From the NCBI GenBank assembly GCA_947564465.1, contig CANOCV010000011.1, forward strand, positions 1 to 64,000: DNA of 64,000 nt. Direction: 5' to 3'. This stretch comes from an uncultured Roseburia sp. (lineage in GTDB: Bacteria; Bacillota; Clostridia; Lachnospirales; Lachnospiraceae). Numbering within the stretch: the stretch's first letter is position 1; every line of letters starts with the position of its first letter. Shown here piece by piece: positions 37,633-47,530 of this stretch. Both the position numbers and the translations under genes were made by a program. The notes below the pieces were generated by a model, which saw only the letters and a list, made by a program, of their open reading frames with translations, did no database searches and was not told the DNA's origin.

Positions 37633-37692
37633 GTATATAAATACATGTCAAAAAATGGATTTTTTGGCAGAAATAGACAAAGGGGAACTGAA

Positions 37693-38679
37693 ATGAGCGA
37701 AATGAAGCGAAGCAGGGTACTGGACATTTTTTTCCGGACAATGAAAGGTGAGGACGTATCCGTTAAGAAACTGGCAGATGAGTATAAAGTATCGTCAAAA
37801 AGCATATCTCGTGACATCAGTGAAATCAAAAGTTTCCTCGCAGACAACCGTGAGCTGGTGGGCAATGCGGAGCTTGAATATTCCCACAAGAGCCGCGCGT
37901 ACCGTCTGAGCATGAAAGAGTTTTTAAAGAACGAGGAACTAATCACAATTATCAAAATTCTAATCGGCAGCCGTGCGTTGAGCAAGATGGAGCTGTTGCA
38001 GATCATCGGTAAATTAAAAGGGTTTACCACTTACCAGGACAGGCTTTTAGTCGAAGAATTAATTCAAAAGGAAATATATCATTACCGAGAGGTGGGACAT
38101 GACTGCATGAGCGTGGAGGCTATGATTTGGAAGCTGACGAAGTGCATTCATGAGAGAACCGAAATCAGTGTGCGCTATTATAAGGTGAGCAGGGAGGATG
38201 TCACAAGGCGTCTGCGTCCGGTAGCCATTATTTTCAGCGAGTACTATTTTTATTTAATAGCGTACCGCACAGAGGACTGTGATTTTACACCGATTTATTA
38301 CAGAGTCGACCGGATTATAGAGATGATAGAGCATCGCACGCATTTCGAGTCTGACGAGCGGTATGAGTTTGATGAGGGGGAGCTGCGCGAGCGGATTCAG
38401 CTTATGTTTCCGGGGAAGGACCGCAAAATTCGTTTCGAATACTATGGCCCGTCCGTGCAGGCGATTCTCGATAAGCTGCCGACAGCGAGAGTGACCGAAG
38501 TCTATGGGAATACGAAGGTGATTGAAGCGGAGGTCTACGGAGTCGGGGTGAATATGTTTCTGCTCTCGCAGGGGAGCTGGGTGAAAGCGATAGGGCCAAA
38601 GGAGTTTGTGGAGGAGATGCGGAATGAGGTCGTGAAATTGATGGAGTATTATGAGGGGGATAGTGTGAATTCGGTTTGA
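37693..38679 (+). CDS. WYL-domain transcriptional regulator
   Basis: This 328-residue regulator has an N-terminal helix-turn-helix (about 18-55, with LADEYKVSSKSISRDISEIK) and a C-terminal WYL ligand-sensing domain (about 145-225, with RLRPVAIIFSEYYFYLIAYR) plus a WCX-like tail. ATG 37693 is supported by AAAGGGGAACT and by the promoter position; a frame opening at 37645 would begin before or at the transcript start. WYL regulators such as BrxR and CapW repress phage-defence operons. Being first in this cluster, 13 bases before the GTPase gene, it is likely its repressor. Confidence 0.9.
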   Translation: MSEMKRSRVLDIFFRTMKGEDVSVKKLADEYKVSSKSISRDISEIKSFLADNRELVGNAELEYSHKSRAYRLSMKEFLKNEELITIIKILIGSRALSKMELLQIIGKLKGFTTYQDRLLVEELIQKEIYHYREVGHDCMSVEAMIWKLTKCIHERTEISVRYYKVSREDVTRRLRPVAIIFSEYYFYLIAYRTEDCDFTPIYYRVDRIIEMIEHRTHFESDERYEFDEGELRERIQLMFPGKDRKIRFEYYGPSVQAILDKLPTARVTEVYGNTKVIEAEVYGVGVNMFLLSQGSWVKAIGPKEFVEEMRNEVVKLMEYYEGDSVNSV

Positions 38680-38692
38680 GGGAGGTTGTGTG

Positions 38693-40213
38693 ATGGAGGA
38701 AAAGGATACGGAAGCGCAGGGATTGATTAGCAGTACATTTTTTTCAAGAGCAATTGCGGTTGACCACACAAAGGTTTTCCCGGTGATGGTATTGGCGACA
38801 ATGTCGAGTGGAAAGAGCACTCTTATCAATGCGTTGCTTGGGGAGGATATACTGCCAAGCAAGAATGAAGCGTGTACGGCAAAGGTATATTCTATCTTAG
38901 ATGACGATTCTATGGAAGAACCAAAGCTGTATATTACATCAAACGATGGACATGTAAACGTGATTGAAGAAAATCTGGCTGCGGCGTTGGAAGAGGCAAA
39001 CAATACAGATACCGTTAAAGATATTTTGATTTCCGGTGATATTAAAGGTGTGTTTAACACAGATAAAGCACTGCTTGTTATTGATACGCCGGGACCCAAT
39101 AATTCACGCGATGCACTGCATGAATCTATCACAAAGAATGTGCTTGATAAGCTGTATGGCGGGCTTATCTTATACGTTATGAACGCGACACAGATGGGAA
39201 TTAACGATGATTGTCAGTTGTTGAGCATTTTGAGAGCGCATATGCAAAAGCACAAAAAAGTGAAGGTAGTTTTTGTGATTAACAAAATGGATGCGATAGA
39301 TTTTGAAAAGGAATCCGCGGCCGAACTGATTTGTGAGATAAAGAAGTATATTGAAAATAATGGAATTGATAATCCGGATATCATTCCGGTGTCTGCTCTG
39401 GCGGCCAATCTTTTTAAGAAAGTATTAGAGGGTGAGAAACTTACAAGGAGTCAATACAAAAGTTTTTTAGCTATGTATGAGCTGTTTCGGACATCGGATA
39501 TCCGAATGACATCCTATGCAATGACGGAAGAAGTGCCAAACCGCATGAATAAAATTGTTGTGCGCGAGATGGAATATACGGTTGCGGAAATTATGGCGGC
39601 GATTGAAAATACGGGTATTACCTATCTCGAAAATTATATACAGGAGGCGCAGATTCTCAGCAGTGAAAATTCTTCGGTGAAGATAAATCTAAAGAGTGCA
39701 GTTACAAAATTTTCCATTGAATACCATCCTTATCTATTGAAGTACACGTTTAAGAAAAACGGAAAAAGATTAAGTGCGTACAATGAAATCCGAAAAAGAG
39801 CCAATACGGTCCTTTTCCGGAATTTGTTTGAAAAATCAGGAAATTGGTCCGGATTGACCGCAGAAATTGTAAAGCTTTGCAATACTCCGGAGGTAGAGAT
39901 TCATTTTACCGGAAGGCAAACAGACTACAATGATTTAAAGGGATGTATTGACCAATATAACGGCAGCGCCGTCATTCATTTGTGCTTTGATAAATGCCAC
40001 AGTGATGCAGAATTGATACAGGAGCTGGATCAAATTGTATCGGATGCAAAAAGTGTGATTCCACAGCCCGCTGCAAGAAACCGGGAAGGAAGAAATATAT
40101 ATGAGGTTTATGACGAAGCAAAGAACGGGGAGTGTGACGGCGAATATCATTTAAAAGTCAAGGAGGCGTTTGACGATATTATTCGGATCAGGAATAAATG
40201 GAATATTACTTAA
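38693..40213 (+). CDS. Dynamin-like GTPase with permuted domain order
   Basis: This 506-residue protein starts at ATG 38693 behind GGAGGT. The GTPase domain comes first: P-loop ATMSSGKST (35-43), G3 IDTPGPNNSRD (about 129-139), G4 INKMDA (about 195-200). From about residue 335 to 480 it carries a module (VTKFSIEYHPYLLKYTFKKN ... REGRNIYEVYDEAKNGE) that is homologous to the N-terminal 150 residues of the next protein. In the next protein that module stands before the GTPase. It also lacks the long helical C-terminal half of the neighbour. It is probably a membrane-active GTPase subunit working with its paralogue. Confidence 0.85.
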   Translation: MEEKDTEAQGLISSTFFSRAIAVDHTKVFPVMVLATMSSGKSTLINALLGEDILPSKNEACTAKVYSILDDDSMEEPKLYITSNDGHVNVIEENLAAALEEANNTDTVKDILISGDIKGVFNTDKALLVIDTPGPNNSRDALHESITKNVLDKLYGGLILYVMNATQMGINDDCQLLSILRAHMQKHKKVKVVFVINKMDAIDFEKESAAELICEIKKYIENNGIDNPDIIPVSALAANLFKKVLEGEKLTRSQYKSFLAMYELFRTSDIRMTSYAMTEEVPNRMNKIVVREMEYTVAEIMAAIENTGITYLENYIQEAQILSSENSSVKINLKSAVTKFSIEYHPYLLKYTFKKNGKRLSAYNEIRKRANTVLFRNLFEKSGNWSGLTAEIVKLCNTPEVEIHFTGRQTDYNDLKGCIDQYNGSAVIHLCFDKCHSDAELIQELDQIVSDAKSVIPQPAARNREGRNIYEVYDEAKNGECDGEYHLKVKEAFDDIIRIRNKWNIT

Positions 40214-40368
40214 AAATATACGATTCTATCGAGCTTCTTGGGGGCTTCGTATGTTTGGCAGTGAAGAGGATGGGATAGATCCAAAATCGATCAATGGTTC
40301 ATATCTATATGAGTTGATGGGAGACAAATTTCACGAACCCCAATAAATACATTGAGAGGAGAAAAGAA
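40214..40368 (+). other. Spacer between the two GTPase genes with broken reading frames
   Basis: Two short frames without ribosome binding sites overlap: 40198-40278 (MEYYLKIYDSIELLGGFVCL) and 40251-40346 (MFGSEEDGIDPKSINGSYLY). Joined by a frameshift they would read as one protein-like tail. They may be the remains of a gene end left by the rearrangement that created the permuted GTPase. The GTPase 2 ribosome binding site GAGAGGAG is at the end. Confidence 0.4.
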
Positions 40369-42669
40369 ATGACAAAGTTTTCAATAGAATACAATCCGTA
40401 TCTTGTGGAATGTGTATTCCGGAAAAACGAAAAGGTATTGAATAGTAACAGTAAAATCGGAGCAAAATCAGGGGAAAGACTGCAGGCATTATTAGGAGAG
40501 TCCGGGAATTGGAAAGGACTTCCGGAAGAGATTGCGAATGCGTGTGACGATGATGAGGTTGAAGTTACGTTTAAAGGAAGGAGGATTGATTACAACGACC
40601 TAAAGGATACGATTGAATTGTATAAGGGGAATGTTCGTTTTAAATTATTATTTGAAGAATCCAAGAATGATGCGGATGTCATGAAAGAGTTGGATAAAAT
40701 ATTCAATGATATTAAGCAGAAGAACATACCGGAGTTTCAGGCTGAAAATGAGGAAGGGAAAGATATTTTTGACGCCTATGAAGAGGTAAAAAACGGAATT
40801 TTTGAAGTCAGCGTTATTGCGACAATGAGCAGCGGAAAATCAACATTGATCAATGCGCTTTTGCATACAGAACTTCTTCCTTCCGAGAACAAAGCATGTA
40901 CGGCAACAATTTGCCGTATTCTGGATAATGATGAAATGGAGCAGTATGAGGCTGCATGTTATGCGAATGACGAAACAGTAATTCATCCGAGAACGGTTGT
41001 GACACCGGAGATGATGAGGGAATATAATGCCGACGAAGCGATTACATATATTGATATTGAGGGAAGTGTTCCGGCAATTCCAAGTGATAAAATCAGATTA
41101 TGTTTGAGAGATACTCCGGGACCGAACAACTCAAGAGATGAGAATCATGAGCGGTTAACCAGTTCCATTATAAAAAGAACAAATGCGGTTGTGCTGTATG
41201 TTATGAACGCAACACAAATCGGTATCAATGATGATGAGCAGCTGTTGAAAAGTATTTCCAATGAAATGAAAAGAGCAGGAAAGCAGTCAAGAGATCGTTT
41301 TATTTTTGTAATAAATAAGTGTGATGCATTAGATGAGGAGAAAGGCGAAACGACGGAGAAATTACTGAAAGATGTAAAAGATTATCTAAAGGGCTTTGGC
41401 ATAGTGGAGCCGACACTGATTCCTACAAGCGCACGTCTCGCTTTACTCATTAGAAAAGAGCGTAAGGGTGAAAAGTTATCCAGGATGGAGAGACAGACTT
41501 TATCTCAGGTAGAGGACTTCGTAGAAATTGACAAGCTGCATTTTGAGAAAAATGCAACGCTCACGCCGACAGTACATGAAAAATTGCAAAGAGATGTAGA
41601 GCGTTTTCATGCAGATGAGGAGAATTGGGATTTAGAGGCGCTGATTCATACCGGAGTTCCGGCCGTAGAGGAGACAATCTGTGAATATATTGAGAAGTAT
41701 GCGTATCCAATCAAAATAAAGGATGCCATTAAGGACATAAAAGGAATCCTGGATGAATTAAACATGAAAGCCAAGTTTGCGGAAAGTATTGCGTTTGATA
41801 AAGATCAATTAGACAAAGTCCGTGCACAGATTAAAGAGGCTGAGAAAAAGAACGCTGCCGGTAAAAACATATATGATTCTTATAAAGAGAAGATCAGTAA
41901 TTTCCGGCTAGATTCAATAAGTGAAGAGGATGAACAGGTTTCTGTTGAAGTGGAACTGCGAAGAATGGTAAAAGAATATGATAATAAGACAAACATTGAT
42001 AAGATGGAAGCGGATAGGCTGATAGAGTCATTTCAGGAAACATTGAACAGATTCCAAAAAAACTGCGAAACAAGGTTAAACAGGGAAATTGATATGAAAA
42101 TATTCCAGAAATGCAGTGAATTATTGGAGGAATATACGACCATGATCCGTGAGACGCTCGACGATATTAAAATTGACGGATATGATTTCAGAAAGAGTAA
42201 ATCGTTTGAGAGAATCAAGATTTCAAATGTAAGTGAAATTAAAAAGAGAAATGAGCGGGAACGGTATCGAAATGAAACGAGATGGAAAGATAATCCGGAA
42301 CGTTCCGGCTTTTTTGGTTTTTTTAAATTCTGGAAACCGAGGGAAATTTCGTATACTGTAACAGTTAAAGACGGTGTAGATGTAAATGTAAGGAATGTTA
42401 TTGTTGACATTATGACTATGTTTGCAAAAAGCATAAAAGAAAATATAAGCAGTATATTCCGGCAGTCGGAGGAACAGGTTGAAGAATACAAGACAGTTTT
42501 TTATGACAATATTGATACACTGAGTTCAGAAATAGATAATATATTGAATCGGCTGAAGGAAGATACAAAAGAATCAAAGGAATTGGAGAAACGCGTAGAA
42601 AAAAATAAAGAAATAGCGGCGTGGGTTGAAAATAAGGAAGAAGAGATTAAAACTTTGTTGATGTTCTAA
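40369..42669 (+). CDS. Dynamin-like GTPase, full-length paralogue
   Basis: This 766-residue protein begins with a module of about 148 residues (MTKFSIEYNPYLVECVFRKN ... EGKDIFDAYEEVKNGI). The GTPase follows with P-loop ATMSSGKST (about 151-160), G3 LRDTPGPNNSRD (about 247-258) and G4 INKCDA (about 316-321). The last half is long, charged and helical, with coiled coils and a short hydrophobic patch RSGFFGFFKFWKP (about 645-657) that could touch membrane, as paddle regions do in bacterial dynamins. It may remodel or tether membranes on GTP hydrolysis. No exact family name can be given. Confidence 0.88.
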   Translation: MTKFSIEYNPYLVECVFRKNEKVLNSNSKIGAKSGERLQALLGESGNWKGLPEEIANACDDDEVEVTFKGRRIDYNDLKDTIELYKGNVRFKLLFEESKNDADVMKELDKIFNDIKQKNIPEFQAENEEGKDIFDAYEEVKNGIFEVSVIATMSSGKSTLINALLHTELLPSENKACTATICRILDNDEMEQYEAACYANDETVIHPRTVVTPEMMREYNADEAITYIDIEGSVPAIPSDKIRLCLRDTPGPNNSRDENHERLTSSIIKRTNAVVLYVMNATQIGINDDEQLLKSISNEMKRAGKQSRDRFIFVINKCDALDEEKGETTEKLLKDVKDYLKGFGIVEPTLIPTSARLALLIRKERKGEKLSRMERQTLSQVEDFVEIDKLHFEKNATLTPTVHEKLQRDVERFHADEENWDLEALIHTGVPAVEETICEYIEKYAYPIKIKDAIKDIKGILDELNMKAKFAESIAFDKDQLDKVRAQIKEAEKKNAAGKNIYDSYKEKISNFRLDSISEEDEQVSVEVELRRMVKEYDNKTNIDKMEADRLIESFQETLNRFQKNCETRLNREIDMKIFQKCSELLEEYTTMIRETLDDIKIDGYDFRKSKSFERIKISNVSEIKKRNERERYRNETRWKDNPERSGFFGFFKFWKPREISYTVTVKDGVDVNVRNVIVDIMTMFAKSIKENISSIFRQSEEQVEEYKTVFYDNIDTLSSEIDNILNRLKEDTKESKELEKRVEKNKEIAAWVENKEEEIKTLLMF

Positions 42670-42681
42670 GGGGGTGTTATT

Positions 42682-43122
42682 ATGCAGCGGTATGATGCGA
42701 TTGAAAGCGGAATAGAAAAAAACGATATAAAGACATTGAGAGAGGCGATAGGAAGTATCTGCTATACAAGCACGGATTTTTCAAGCGGTGAATTTGATGA
42801 AATAGTAAGGTATGTAGAGGCGAAGGGCATAAAATTAAAAGATGATACGTTGATTGGAAATCCTCTTATTTCAAGTACAAAGAGTTCTTTTTCCGATGAG
42901 GATTTTGCAAGGGCGGTTTTTGAATTAAAACGAAATTTCTGTGACGAAAGAATTGGGGATGTTAAGAAGATCGGGAAAGCGCTTTATGCATCAGACAAAC
43001 AGGAACCGGGTAAACGCCCAAACGCACAAAGCCACCAGCAGGAAAGTCGTCTTCCAATGATAGCAGGACTGGTGGCAGCGGTGATAATCATAGCAGTTGT
43101 AATCTTACTGCTAAGGAGGTAA
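42682..43122 (+). CDS. Tail-anchored small membrane protein
   Basis: This 146-residue protein has a helical cytosolic part (about 1-100, with TLREAIGSICYTSTDFSSGE and FARAVFELKRNFCDERIGDV), a polar linker, and one C-terminal membrane helix, MIAGLVAAVIIIAVVILLLRR, so it should be tail-anchored. It lies 12 bases after GTPase 2, with GGGGGTG before the ATG. I recognise no named family. Its position suggests that it recruits the GTPases or the ATPase to the membrane, which is inference. Confidence 0.75.
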   Translation: MQRYDAIESGIEKNDIKTLREAIGSICYTSTDFSSGEFDEIVRYVEAKGIKLKDDTLIGNPLISSTKSSFSDEDFARAVFELKRNFCDERIGDVKKIGKALYASDKQEPGKRPNAQSHQQESRLPMIAGLVAAVIIIAVVILLLRR

Positions 43123-43145
43123 AGAAGAACTTTGGCTGTACGAAT

Positions 43146-43448
43146 ATGCGTAGCTGTATATCTTGCGGCAAAAATAAAAATTGCGACGAAGGTGGAGCAA
43201 AGAATTATAGACAGTATGTGCGCAAACGGAACAGGGAGTTAAAGGAACGATACAGGTGTGACCGTGTGAATGGTCTATGCAAATTAGATAAATGTAAATT
43301 CTATAAAGAGTGTGATAAAAAAGCCAAGAAAAAGTATGAAGCATGGCGTGCCGCTTTTAGCAAAAGTAAAAAAGAAGAATTAGAAAAACTATCCAAAGGA
43401 GATTATAGTTATGGACACTCAAGTGGCGGAAGTACAAGATATGAATAA
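43146..43448 (+). CDS. Cys-rich basic small protein
   Basis: This 100-residue frame starts MRSCISCGKNKNCDEGGAKN and has two further pairs (YRCDRVNGLCKLDKC, FYKECDK), so two metal-binding knuckles are possible. The rest is Lys/Glu-rich and helical. AAGGAGG lies 27 bases upstream, too far for a normal start, so translation is perhaps coupled to the preceding stop at 43122. It overlaps the ATPase start by 38 bases. The family is not recognised. Confidence 0.6.
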   Translation: MRSCISCGKNKNCDEGGAKNYRQYVRKRNRELKERYRCDRVNGLCKLDKCKFYKECDKKAKKKYEAWRAAFSKSKKEELEKLSKGDYSYGHSSGGSTRYE

Positions 43449-46400
43449 GCTTGCCATGTCTTTGGATTTGGCAAAAGATGTAATTACCAGAGATTATCTT
43501 TATCAATTAAGCGAATATTCTGTTGCAGAATTGCCGGAAGAATTTAAAGAGCTTGACATTGCCGATTATACCAGAATTTTTAAATTTACAAAAATGGTAT
43601 CGGATAAGAAAGAGAGCATGATTGATAAATTTGTAACGGTTTTAAATGCAGCATATTCAAGCAATGCGACGGTTGTGACTTTGATATCCGGGCATAAGGA
43701 GTATACAGAATATTTTCTGGGGGTTGTGAGTAAAGATATAGATCAGCAAAATCATATCATCGAAACACAAGGAGAAATACTGAAAGGAGTATTAACAGGT
43801 AATTTTCCGGGATTGGAAATTGAAGCTATTTCGGGAGTAAGCAAAAAACAGCTTCTTCATAATGCGTTTGTTTATGATTATGTGACATCTATATCAGGGA
43901 TTGCGTCTATTCGAAATGAGAAGGAAAATGCATATGAAAAATTCGTTCAGGGGATAGAGCATTTGGTGGATTCTTTGCAGGGGAAAGAATATAGCGTTGT
44001 GGTGATAGCAGATCCGGTGGATGCGAAAGAGATTGCTCTTGCCAAAATGGGATATGAGACGCTTTATACACAGCTTTCGCCGTTTTTGAAAACATCTGTA
44101 AGCTTTAACGAATCGGAATCTATCACATTGACTCAGACGCATACGGAAGGCGTTACACAATCTATCGGGGAAAGCAGCTCATTGACGCAGAATTACTCTA
44201 AGACAAGCGGATGGAGCGAAACTTCCAGCCATGGCACCAGTACGAATAAAGAGACCGGTCATCTGGTTGGTTCATTGCTGGGTGCCGGAATAGGTGCGGC
44301 GGCCGTAATATTAACCGGAGGTGCAGCGGCTCCGGCAGTTGCAGCATATATGGGCAGTCAGATTGGTGCTTCGGCAGGCGGGGGCATGATAGGTTCGAAA
44401 GGAACGAATACAAATCAGTCTGTTACAGAGACAGGCAGTATGACGGAGTCATCCGGTAAGACTGAGACAAGAACAAGCTCTACGGCCACACAAAACAGCG
44501 ATTCCAGTAGCGAGGCGGAGGGTGCCACGCATGGTAAAACGCTCCAATTTTCGAATGAAAACAAGACAGTGAAGAATTTATTGCAAATGATAGACAAGCA
44601 TGTTGAGCGTCTGCAAAAGTGTGAGGCATATGGGGCATTTAATTGTGCAACTTATGTGATTTCATCAGACCCTGAGACAAACGCGATTGTATCAAGTGGA
44701 TATAATGCTCTTATGCGGGGAGATAACTCGGCATTGCAGGCATCCCATATAAATAATTGGAATGTGAATGATAAAAATGGTAAAATGGTGAAGGAGTACC
44801 TAGAGAGATTTTCTCATCCTTTATTTATAAATCCAATTAAGAATGATGTTTTGTTCAGCCCTGCATCTATTTCAAATTCTTATGAACTTGCGGTTAATAT
44901 GGGGCTTCCCAAAAAATCAATTAGCGGCCTGCCTGTTTTTGAAATGGCTTCATTTGGCAGGAATGTGTTTGATACCAATCCGCGAAAGGATGCATTGTGG
45001 CAGATTGAGCTTGGTAACATTTATCATATGGGTAGCGAACAGAAAGTAAGTGTGAATCTGAATCTTAAGAGTTTGGCGATGCATACTTTTGTAACGGGTT
45101 CGACCGGTTCGGGAAAATCAAATACGGTATATCAGATGCTCAGGGAACTAAGCAGACAAAAAGTACATTACCTTGTGATTGAGCCGGCAAAAGGGGAATA
45201 CAAGTATGTTTTTGGGGACTCTGACGCCAAAGTGTATGGAACAAACCCGTATATTACGCCGTTGTTACAGATCAACCCGTTTAGATTTCCAAAAGGAATC
45301 CACGTATTAGAGCATATTGATCGTTTGGTTGAGATTTTTAATGTATGCTGGCCTATGTATGCGGCAATGCCGGCGGTGTTAAAAGATTCTGTTGAGCGTG
45401 CATATATAAACGCGGGATGGGATTTGGCGGCTTCACATAACCAATTTTCGGATATGTTATTTCCGACTTTTGCGGATATATTAAGCGAATTGAACCGTGT
45501 CGTAGACGAATCGGCATTTTCACAGGAGGTAAAGGATAATTATATAGGCTCTTTGGCGACAAGGATAAAATCATTAACGAATGGAATTTACGGCAGAATA
45601 TTTGCAAATGATGAGCTGGGGGATAAGAAGCTGTTTGATGAGAATGTGATAGTAGATCTTAGCAGAGTAGGTTCGATTGAAACGAAATCTATGATAATGG
45701 GTATTCTGGTTATGAGATTACAGGAATACCGCATGACGTCCGGTGATATGAATGCAGATCTGAAACATGTAACTGTTTTAGAAGAAGCGCACAACTTACT
45801 TAAGAAAACCTCAACGGAACAAAGCAGTGAATCATCGAATCTATTGGGAAAATCGGTTGAAATGTTGGCGAATGCCATTGCCGAAGTGAGAACTTATGGG
45901 GAGGGATTTATCATTGCGGATCAGGCGCCGGGCCTGCTTGATATGAGTGTTATCAGAAATACTAATACCAAAATTATCATGCGCTTACCGGATGCCGAAG
46001 ATAGGAGTTTAGTAGGAAAATCTGCGAATTTATCGGAAGAGCAGATCAAAGAACTATCCAAGATTCCGACAGGCGTTGCGGCGGTATATCAAAATAACTG
46101 GTTGGAGCCGGTGTTGTGTAAGATTAAGTACGAGAAGACAGGGAATACATACCACAATGCGGATTCCGCGGCGGTGTCACAGAAGCCGGAAGATGTGACA
46201 GTGATGAATAAGCTGTTGAGCAAGGTTGCCGGCGAAAAACTGGATATGAACATGGATGAGCTGGTTCAAGTTATTGTGAATTCTTCTATACCAACAAAAA
46301 GTAAGGCGGAGAGCATAAGAATACTAAGTCGAAACGGTGAGGTGGAACTAAAGGATATCAGTTCCGTAGTATATGAAATTGTAAGTACGCCTGAGTTGGA

Positions 46401-46602
46401 AAGAGAGGCCGATAATGCGGAATCAATAGAGGAGTGGAAGAATACGTTCGTGTATGCGGAAGGTTCTGTGGTTGCTGATTTGACCGAAAAACAACAAAAT
46501 CAAATAGCCGAGTGTATTTTAAGAGAAGAGATTGCCCGCCATGATAAACCGGATGAATATCTTGAAACATGGTATAAATACACGAAAGGAGAGGTGATTT
46601 AA
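43411..46602 (+). CDS. HerA/FtsK-like ATPase with internal glycine-rich membrane-like segment
   Basis: This 1063-residue protein has a novel N-terminal part (1-250). A Ser/Thr-rich stretch (about 235-275) is followed by a hydrophobic Gly/Ala run (about 282-329, with GSLLGAGIGAAAVILTGGAA) and another Ser/Thr stretch. The HerA-type ATPase core (about 490-910) has P-loop TGSTGSGKSNTV (about 560-572), DExx-type Walker B VLEEAHNLL (about 788-796) and PTGVAAVYQNNW near 890. Related DUF87 ATPases pump DNA or power protein export. Next to a toxin and immunity pair, a role in moving or processing the toxin is an attractive inference. ATG 43411 follows AAAGGAGA. Confidence 0.85.
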   Translation: MDTQVAEVQDMNKLAMSLDLAKDVITRDYLYQLSEYSVAELPEEFKELDIADYTRIFKFTKMVSDKKESMIDKFVTVLNAAYSSNATVVTLISGHKEYTEYFLGVVSKDIDQQNHIIETQGEILKGVLTGNFPGLEIEAISGVSKKQLLHNAFVYDYVTSISGIASIRNEKENAYEKFVQGIEHLVDSLQGKEYSVVVIADPVDAKEIALAKMGYETLYTQLSPFLKTSVSFNESESITLTQTHTEGVTQSIGESSSLTQNYSKTSGWSETSSHGTSTNKETGHLVGSLLGAGIGAAAVILTGGAAAPAVAAYMGSQIGASAGGGMIGSKGTNTNQSVTETGSMTESSGKTETRTSSTATQNSDSSSEAEGATHGKTLQFSNENKTVKNLLQMIDKHVERLQKCEAYGAFNCATYVISSDPETNAIVSSGYNALMRGDNSALQASHINNWNVNDKNGKMVKEYLERFSHPLFINPIKNDVLFSPASISNSYELAVNMGLPKKSISGLPVFEMASFGRNVFDTNPRKDALWQIELGNIYHMGSEQKVSVNLNLKSLAMHTFVTGSTGSGKSNTVYQMLRELSRQKVHYLVIEPAKGEYKYVFGDSDAKVYGTNPYITPLLQINPFRFPKGIHVLEHIDRLVEIFNVCWPMYAAMPAVLKDSVERAYINAGWDLAASHNQFSDMLFPTFADILSELNRVVDESAFSQEVKDNYIGSLATRIKSLTNGIYGRIFANDELGDKKLFDENVIVDLSRVGSIETKSMIMGILVMRLQEYRMTSGDMNADLKHVTVLEEAHNLLKKTSTEQSSESSNLLGKSVEMLANAIAEVRTYGEGFIIADQAPGLLDMSVIRNTNTKIIMRLPDAEDRSLVGKSANLSEEQIKELSKIPTGVAAVYQNNWLEPVLCKIKYEKTGNTYHNADSAAVSQKPEDVTVMNKLLSKVAGEKLDMNMDELVQVIVNSSIPTKSKAESIRILSRNGEVELKDISSVVYEIVSTPELEREADNAESIEEWKNTFVYAEGSVVADLTEKQQNQIAECILREEIARHDKPDEYLETWYKYTKGEVI

Positions 46603-47123
46603 TGCATTCATTCAGCGAAGTGAAAGAAATAAAGAAGCCGACGCAGGAGGTTGGAAATAAGTCAAAGGGATTTGAGAATACAACAAAAGAGGTAAACGAG
46701 CCAAGACACATTTCGACGATCAATGAGAATTTGGCGGGAAAAACATATCCAGGGACAGATGTAAGATATGAAAAACATGTATTTAGGATGAATGGTGAGA
46801 AAGTGGAAGGTGTTTTCCCCAGATTTGAAAGTAAGTTTGATACATATTTACCGAAAGACTGGCGAAATGCTAGTGATAATGCACAATTTAAGTATTGTAC
46901 GGAGAAGCTGAAACAGCGTATAGAGCATGACCCTGAGTTTGCAAAGCAATTTACACCAAGACAGCTTGAACAAATAAAGGACGGCGCACCGAGAATATCG
47001 GGTTTGACATGGCATCATAATGAGGTTCCGGGAAAAATGCGATTGGTCAATGCCCAACAGCATGATACATGCAGACATACCGGAGGCAGGAGTGTTTGGG
47101 GTGGCGGCTCCGGATGCAGATAG
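46602..47123 (+). CDS. HNH/Endo VII-type nuclease toxin (WHH motif)
   Basis: This 173-residue protein starts on a TAATG overlap with the ATPase gene, with AAAGGAGAGGTG upstream. The C-terminal half contains FPRFESKFDTYLPKDWRNAS and GLTWHHNEVPGKMRLVNAQQ followed by HDTCRHTGGRSVWGGG, the pattern of HNH/Endo VII 'WHH' nucleases seen as C-terminal domains of polymorphic toxins. The first 60 residues are polar and lack a signal, LXG, RHS or other known trafficking domain. It should cleave nucleic acid in a target cell or in its own cell. The SUKH gene just after it is the expected immunity partner. Confidence 0.88.
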   Translation: MHSFSEVKEIKKPTQEVGNKSKGFENTTKEVNEPRHISTINENLAGKTYPGTDVRYEKHVFRMNGEKVEGVFPRFESKFDTYLPKDWRNASDNAQFKYCTEKLKQRIEHDPEFAKQFTPRQLEQIKDGAPRISGLTWHHNEVPGKMRLVNAQQHDTCRHTGGRSVWGGGSGCR

Positions 47124-47131
47124 GAGGATAT

Positions 47132-47530
47132 ATGAATATAAAATGGAATTATAAAATTGATTTAGCGGATGAAAAAGTGTTTTCTGAGATTGAGAAGGAC
47201 AGAGAGATTGAAATTCCCCAGAATCTTGTAAATTTAATAAAAGAGGGAAACGCGGCGACACCTGAGCGATATAAATTTATCGTTGGTTCCACGGAAAGAG
47301 TTATAGGTGCGATTTTATCATTCAATAGAAACGAAGCGGATACAGATACCGTGTTTACTGCATTATCAGTTATTGATAACAAAAGTTTAATGCCGTTCGC
47401 TATTGATCCGTTTGGAAATTATATATGTATGGATTTACAAAAGTGTACAGTGGTATTTTGGGACCATGAAACAGGTGACGTATTTAGCACAGATAAAGAA
47501 TTGGATAGTTTTATGGATAGTTTGTATTAG
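47132..47530 (+). CDS. SUKH (SMI1/KNR4-like) immunity protein
   Basis: This 132-residue acidic protein starts at ATG 47132, 5 bases after TAGGAGG and 8 bases after the nuclease gene. The pattern EIPQNLVNLIKEGNAATPER ... PFAIDPFGNYICMDLQKCTV and VVFWDHETG matches the SUKH superfamily, the commonest immunity family next to nuclease toxins. It should bind and block the preceding HNH nuclease. It is the last gene of the cluster; a hairpin follows. Confidence 0.88.
   Translation: MNIKWNYKIDLADEKVFSEIEKDREIEIPQNLVNLIKEGNAATPERYKFIVGSTERVIGAILSFNRNEADTDTVFTALSVIDNKSLMPFAIDPFGNYICMDLQKCTVVFWDHETGDVFSTDKELDSFMDSLY

What the first reader, a model, noticed from the sequence alone, without database searches (positions are those of the whole stretch)
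38693..42669. Circularly permuted GTPase next to its normal paralogue
The 150-residue module that precedes the GTPase in the second protein follows the GTPase in the first. The matching ends are seen directly: VTKFSIEYHPYLLKYTF against MTKFSIEYNPYLVECVF, and REGRNIYEVYDEAKNGE against EEGKDIFDAYEEVKNGI. A simple origin is a tandem duplication followed by deletion, giving GTPase-module from [module-GTPase-tail] x2. The P-loop, G3 and G4 motifs are kept in both, so both are likely active.
Basis: seen in the sequence. Interest (0 to 1): 0.7.

Follow-up and report, generated by a model that had tools for sequence, protein, structure and literature searches.

The report
Dynamin GTPase fused to partner's module
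One member of an ancient pair of bacterial dynamin-like GTPases has picked up, at its tail end, a second and diverged copy of the domain its partner carries at its front; the pair belongs to a widespread, apparently undescribed gene cluster that ends in interchangeable DNA-cutting toxin and immunity genes.

Summary
In detail: residues 337-479 of protein 1 (P1, 38693-40213) match the N-terminal 143 residues of protein 2 (P2, 40369-42669) at about 45% identity, far above chance, and both GTPases keep their motifs. The interpretation needs changing. The GTPase is not circularly permuted, and P1 is not a rearranged copy of P2. P1's GTPase belongs to an old, separate lineage ("A"), P2's to lineage "B"; the two lie side by side in operons from Bacillota to Pseudomonadota, and sisterhood of P1 and P2 is rejected (AU p about 1e-61). 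In about 80 relatives the module sits only on B. The window is the only case of GTPase-then-module: A's stop is gone and A runs in frame into an extra copy of B's module. That copy groups with Lachnospiraceae B modules and still looks selected as protein, but has lost three otherwise invariant residues. Similar part-copying of B occurs independently in Lachnoanaerobaculum and Brachyspira. The pair is part of a conserved operon: (WYL regulator)-A-B-anchored protein-HerA-like ATPase-variable nuclease-immunity. I found no description of it in the literature held here; that operon is the more interesting result.

The parts
38693..40213 (+). P1: A-type dynamin-like GTPase fused at its C terminus to an extra copy of the B module (506 aa)
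   Evidence: Dynamin_N 59.8 bits
38774..39652 (+). A-type GTPase domain of P1 (residues 28-320)
   Evidence: clade A; AlphaFold pLDDT mostly 85-97
39653..39700 (+). Linker where gene A normally stops (residues 321-336; pLDDT under 50 for 326-335)
39701..40129 (+). Module copy m1 (residues 337-479), diverged, lacks N9/R37/Q39 of the module family
40130..40368 (+). 27-residue tail of P1 plus spacer; no homology to gene B or to anything else searched
40369..42669 (+). P2: B-type dynamin-like protein, module-GTPase-helical tail (766 aa)
40369..40797 (+). Module m2 of P2 (residues 1-143), compact alpha/beta domain, pLDDT 92.5
37645..38679 (+). WYL-domain HTH regulator; found within four genes upstream of B in 36 of 79 loci
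42682..43122 (+). Small protein with C-terminal hydrophobic anchor, conserved after gene B
43411..46602 (+). HerA/FtsK-like ATPase with Ser-rich, glycine-rich region
   Evidence: DUF87 50.3 bits; NF033849 and CedD hits below cut-off; 74 of 79 loci
46602..47123 (+). HNH-type nuclease (Colicin-DNase/WHH); variable effector slot
   Evidence: slot variability
47069..47530 (+). SUKH (SMI1/KNR4) immunity protein

Best explanation
P1 is the A subunit of an ancient two-gene dynamin-like GTPase pair. In relatives A ends with its GTPase (with or without a different short extension) and B, usually starting within a few dozen bases, reads module-GTPase-tail. In this lineage the 5' end of B was copied between A and B, either directly or as a full B copy later trimmed, and A's stop codon was lost, so A now reads through the old A/B boundary into the copied module. 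Shown: the homology, the separate ancestry of the two GTPases, the origin of the module from the Lachnospiraceae B clade, its protein-level constraint, and its attachment by a flexible linker in the predicted structure. Inferred: the module is the docking or assembly domain by which B holds A, as the N-terminal helix of Cj-DLP2 holds Cj-DLP1, and the altered extra copy on A tunes or restrains that pairing. Also inferred: the GTPase pair acts on the membrane together with the anchored protein and the HerA-like ATPase to deploy the nuclease encoded downstream, whose producer is protected by the immunity protein.
For: 79 related loci plus family genomes: GTPase-then-module occurs only in the window; everywhere else A lacks the module and precedes B. 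GTPase trees: P1 in A, P2 in B, 100/100; P1+P2 sisterhood rejected, p-AU 8.9e-62; P1 with B rejected, p 0.007. A and B are 35-41% identical in each of eight loci compared, so the split is old. Module tree: m1 inside the Lachnospiraceae B-module clade, 98/92, branch length 1.16; m1+m2 sisterhood not rejected, p 0.34. Boundary: Lachnoanaerobaculum has A and B in the same frame with one TGA between, and the relative L029 aligns across the A stop and B start collinearly with P1. Codon positions of m1 against m2 agree 64/67/42%. Model of P1: two folded domains with a linker below pLDDT 50. Related part-copies: Lachnoanaerobaculum A carries a B-type GTPase (96*, 97/90*), Brachyspira has an extra module-GTPase gene. 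Paired DLP precedent: PMC6104087. Operon; effector and immunity variety.
Against: The fusion is seen in one genome only (1 of 8 in its genus has any match), with no reads to confirm it. m1 lost three residues that are invariant in 49 other modules, so it may be decaying. The 239 bases between m1 and P2 match nothing, so the exact duplication event cannot be read off. The docking role of the module has no direct evidence; its fold has no significant match in PDB (best E 0.023). No heterodimer was modelled.
Confidence: 0.65

Rival explanations
1. The extra module is a decaying leftover: A read through into a truncated B copy, and the C-terminal module has no job.
For: Long branch (1.16) and loss of three invariant residues; one genome only.
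Against: 143 codons open despite near-saturated third positions; first and second codon positions are conserved well above third ones (64/67/42%); predicted to fold, pLDDT about 80-94 over most of m1.
Confidence: 0.2
2. Recombination with a different allele of the operon supplied A and the start of its own B together, joined in front of the resident B.
For: m1 is at most 45% identical to m2 and to every close relative, as if from elsewhere.
Against: m1 is placed in the same Lachnospiraceae clade as m2; P1's GTPase divergence from relatives (62%) is normal for A; no donor found in about 1,190 genomes searched or in the contig scan.
Confidence: 0.08
3. One reading: tandem duplication of [module-GTPase-tail] and deletion, giving GTPase-module by permutation.
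For: Would give the observed domain order.
Against: GTPases of P1 and P2 are not sisters (p-AU 8.9e-62); orthologues of P1's GTPase without the module are found across several phyla.
Confidence: 0.02
4. Assembly or sequencing artefact.
For: Single draft genome in 118 contigs.
Against: The two modules are too different in DNA (280 identical of 454 alignment columns) to be confused by an assembler; codon constraint; operon order intact; no composition break at the junction.
Confidence: 0.04

Closest known systems
Campylobacter jejuni DLP1/DLP2 heterotypic dynamin pair (PMC6104087; PDB 5OWV/5OXF)
   Same: Two adjacent, different dynamin-like GTPases; an N-terminal element of one holds the other through a linker; a structural match to P1's model.
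   Different: There the element is a helix and both proteins are full dynamins; here A is mostly GTPase only, the element is a roughly 120-residue alpha/beta domain, and the operon adds ATPase, nuclease and immunity genes.
LeoA/LeoBC of enterotoxigenic E. coli (PMC4159319)
   Same: Tandem dynamin-like genes; partial profile matches of P1 to LeoA (1.1e-8) and LeoBC.
   Different: The paper does not mention HerA, LeoBC is a split GTPase, and P2 does not match the Leo profiles.
Bacillus subtilis DynA
   Same: Two dynamin GTPases in one chain, as in Lachnoanaerobaculum gene A (L031, L032); linked to phage tolerance (PMC8844932).
   Different: DynA is two whole dynamin-like proteins fused; no module and no nuclease operon known to me.
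Polymorphic toxin systems (PMC3482391)
   Same: Variable nuclease (WHH, LHH, GH-E, NS endonuclease) followed by immunity proteins (SUKH, SUFU, YezG-like).
   Different: That survey's held text does not mention dynamin at all; the toxins here are short and follow a dynamin pair and a HerA-like ATPase.
Circularly permuted GTPases (RsgA/YjeQ, YlqF)
   Same: Name only.
   Different: Motif order in P1 and P2 is the normal G1 to G4.

Membership tests
Dynamin-like protein superfamily | Dynamin_N GTPase domain with G1-G4 motifs | tested here: met
   P1 59.8 and P2 65.1 bits, cut-off 27; motifs read in sequence
Dynamin-like protein superfamily | Structural or sequence similarity to a solved dynamin-like protein | tested here: met
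   P1 model against BDLP 2j69, E 1.8e-12; P2 sequence against 2j68, 1.5e-5
Dynamin-like protein superfamily | Stalk and membrane-binding region | tested here: inconclusive
   P2 has a long C-terminal tail with a hydrophobic GFFGFFKFW stretch; a crude motif search did not find it in other B proteins tried; P1 has no such tail
Circularly permuted GTPase (RsgA/YlqF) | G4-G5 before G1-G3 | tested here: not met
   P1 order: G1 35-43, T62, DTPG 131-134, NKxD 197-200
LeoABC | LeoA and split LeoBC genes | tested here: not met
   Only partial P1 profile hits, none for P2, no split gene
Polymorphic toxin system | Interchangeable toxin domains with cognate immunity gene in a fixed slot | tested here: met
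   At least four Pfam nuclease families and four immunity-type families after the same ATPase
Polymorphic toxin system | Secretion or delivery to another cell | not testable with these tools
   Needs an experiment; trafficking domains were not tested for
Catalogued anti-phage defence systems (PADLOC 2023) | Operon genes match a listed system | tested here: not met
   Only generic HerA/mad8 and WYL hits plus partial Leo hits

The most novel reading that the evidence does not exclude
The operon A-B-anchored protein-HerA-like ATPase-nuclease-immunity is an undescribed, widespread dynamin-powered system for deploying nuclease toxins (between cells or against phage), and the B module is the docking domain of its GTPase pair, which the window's lineage has duplicated onto the partner.
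Probability: 0.4. Interest if true: 0.8.

Novelty: new variant of a known kind. Interest (0 to 1): 0.5.

Why it matters
It shows domain shuffling inside a heterotypic dynamin pair, with donor and acceptor identifiable, so the role of the partner-binding region can be tested by comparing natural variants. More broadly, the conserved operon links bacterial dynamins, whose purpose is often unclear, to polymorphic nuclease toxins and their immunity proteins across Bacillota, Pseudomonadota, Spirochaetota and others, which gives a concrete hypothesis for what such dynamin pairs are for.

Tried and rejected
Circularly permuted GTPase in the YjeQ sense: rejected by motif order. Tandem duplication plus deletion of B: rejected by the tree. 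C-terminal extensions of A in L039, L040 and L044 as further module copies: no profile hit. Spacer 40130-40368 as an insertion-sequence remnant or B remnant: no match. Phage origin: no match in phages or viral contigs. Module fold: no significant PDB match by sequence (best hit E 0.008 over about 22 positions, taken as chance) or structure (weak uS11/Pelota hits, TM at most about 0.4 to the query). First mixed alignment A4 misaligned the modules and was replaced by A5. Literature searches for a dynamin/HerA/toxin operon found nothing; the library lacks most subscription journals.

Full report
Observation. P1's residues 337-479 align to P2's residues 1-143 with 64 identities in 144 columns, and the GTPase regions with 116 in 311; both are far above shuffled controls, and a whole-genome search gives the same two matches. 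Pfam calls Dynamin_N in both, well above its cut-off. The P-loop, switch Thr, DTPG and NKxD are intact in both, in normal order. The GTPase is therefore not circularly permuted; what differs is the order of two domains.

Relatives. A scan of 84,980 species genomes gave 79 loci, the best of 222 candidates, with more from searches of about 1,190 whole genomes. Profiles of the module and of the GTPase, run over the open frames of the loci held at that point, give one picture. Gene A ends with its GTPase, with or without an unrelated N-terminal or short C-terminal extension. Gene B follows and reads module-GTPase-tail. The window is the only place where a GTPase is followed by the module. A lies upstream of B in 72 of 79 loci that have B.

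Ancestry of the GTPases. In a tree of 158 domains, A and B separate deeply. P1 lies among A proteins of Lachnospiraceae, with 62% identity to its orthologue in L029; P2 lies among B proteins, 84% to L029. In a careful tree of 38, the A group including P1 has support 100/100; joining P1 with P2 is rejected with p-AU 8.9e-62, and P1 with the B group with 0.007. A and B are 35-41% identical in each of eight loci compared, and A is more diverged than B in every pair of loci. This rules out deriving P1's GTPase from a recent copy of P2.

Ancestry of the module. The extra module m1 falls in the Lachnospiraceae B-module clade (98/92) on a long branch of 1.16; being sister to m2 is neither shown nor rejected (p 0.34). 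It is 45% identical to m2, whereas B modules of the close relatives are 49-77% identical to m2. Codon positions one and two agree between m1 and m2 at 64 and 67%, position three at 42%, so m1 appears to have been kept as protein. It has nevertheless lost N9, R37 and Q39, which all 49 other modules in the alignment keep.

The junction. In close relatives A stops and B usually starts within a few dozen bases. In Lachnoanaerobaculum the two are in one frame, separated by a single TGA. L029, aligned through its A stop and into its B start, is collinear with P1. P1 thus looks like A read through into a B start. After m1 come 27 residues and a spacer without any recognisable origin, so I cannot tell whether only the 5' end of B or a whole B gene was copied and then trimmed.

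A tendency, not a freak. Lachnoanaerobaculum A carries a copy of its own B-type GTPase in front of the A GTPase (96*; 97/90*). Brachyspira has an extra module-GTPase gene without tail next to the pair. With the window, copying of parts of B into or beside A has happened in three separate lineages.

Structure. The module is predicted with confidence (pLDDT 92.5) as a compact alpha/beta domain with no significant match in PDB. P1 is predicted as two folded domains joined by a linker of low confidence. Its closest solved structures are bacterial and mitochondrial dynamin-like proteins, including the Campylobacter pair.

The operon. After B come a small protein, usually with a C-terminal hydrophobic anchor, and a HerA/FtsK-like ATPase (72 and 74 of 79 loci); a WYL regulator lies upstream in 36. 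The slot after the ATPase holds interchangeable nucleases (Colicin-DNase/WHH, LHH, GH-E, NS endonuclease), followed by immunity-type proteins (SUKH, SUFU, YezG-like, DUF6985). In the window these are 46602-47123 and 47069-47530. The same order occurs on an E. coli plasmid and on a Lactococcus plasmid. A fixed machine followed by an exchangeable toxin-immunity cassette is the hallmark of polymorphic toxin systems (PMC3482391); that survey's held text does not mention dynamin, and further literature searches found no such operon.

How it may work (inference). Paired bacterial dynamins form hetero-oligomers; in Campylobacter an N-terminal element of one partner holds the other through a linker (PMC6104087). 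By analogy the B module may dock onto A. In the window a changed second copy sits on A itself through a flexible linker, and could stabilise, compete with or restrain the pairing. The pair, the anchored protein and the ATPase could together deploy the nuclease, against neighbours or phage; nothing here decides which.

Verdict. A real, so far unique domain fusion within a known kind of protein pair, with an origin different from the one proposed. It lies in a conserved toxin-bearing operon that deserves study in its own right.

Noticed in passing
window 37645-47530 and L025-L107: Conserved operon of dynamin pair, anchored protein, HerA-like ATPase, variable nuclease and immunity gene in Bacillota, Pseudomonadota, Spirochaetota and others; no description found.
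   Followed up: partly
L031:3-1733 and L032:6240-8993: Gene A with two GTPase domains, the first a recent copy of the neighbouring gene B GTPase.
   Followed up: yes
L046:5657-7267: Brachyspira hampsonii carries an extra module-GTPase gene without tail, very similar to the start of its gene B.
   Followed up: partly
L070:6632-8809: Leptotrichia hongkongensis gene A is broken into four short open frames while gene B is intact.
   Followed up: no
window 43146-43448: Short Cys-rich gene between the anchored protein and the ATPase; its cluster holds only the window, L031 and L036.
   Followed up: no
L108 (NZ_CP035852.1, E. coli plasmid) and L109 (NZ_CP032437.1, Lactococcus plasmid): The operon is carried on plasmids typed as conjugative, so it may move between strains.
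   Followed up: no
L048:651-3911, L066:7356-10268, L089:231-3260: Gene B with long N-terminal extensions before the module; L048 and L066 show no separate gene A.
   Followed up: no
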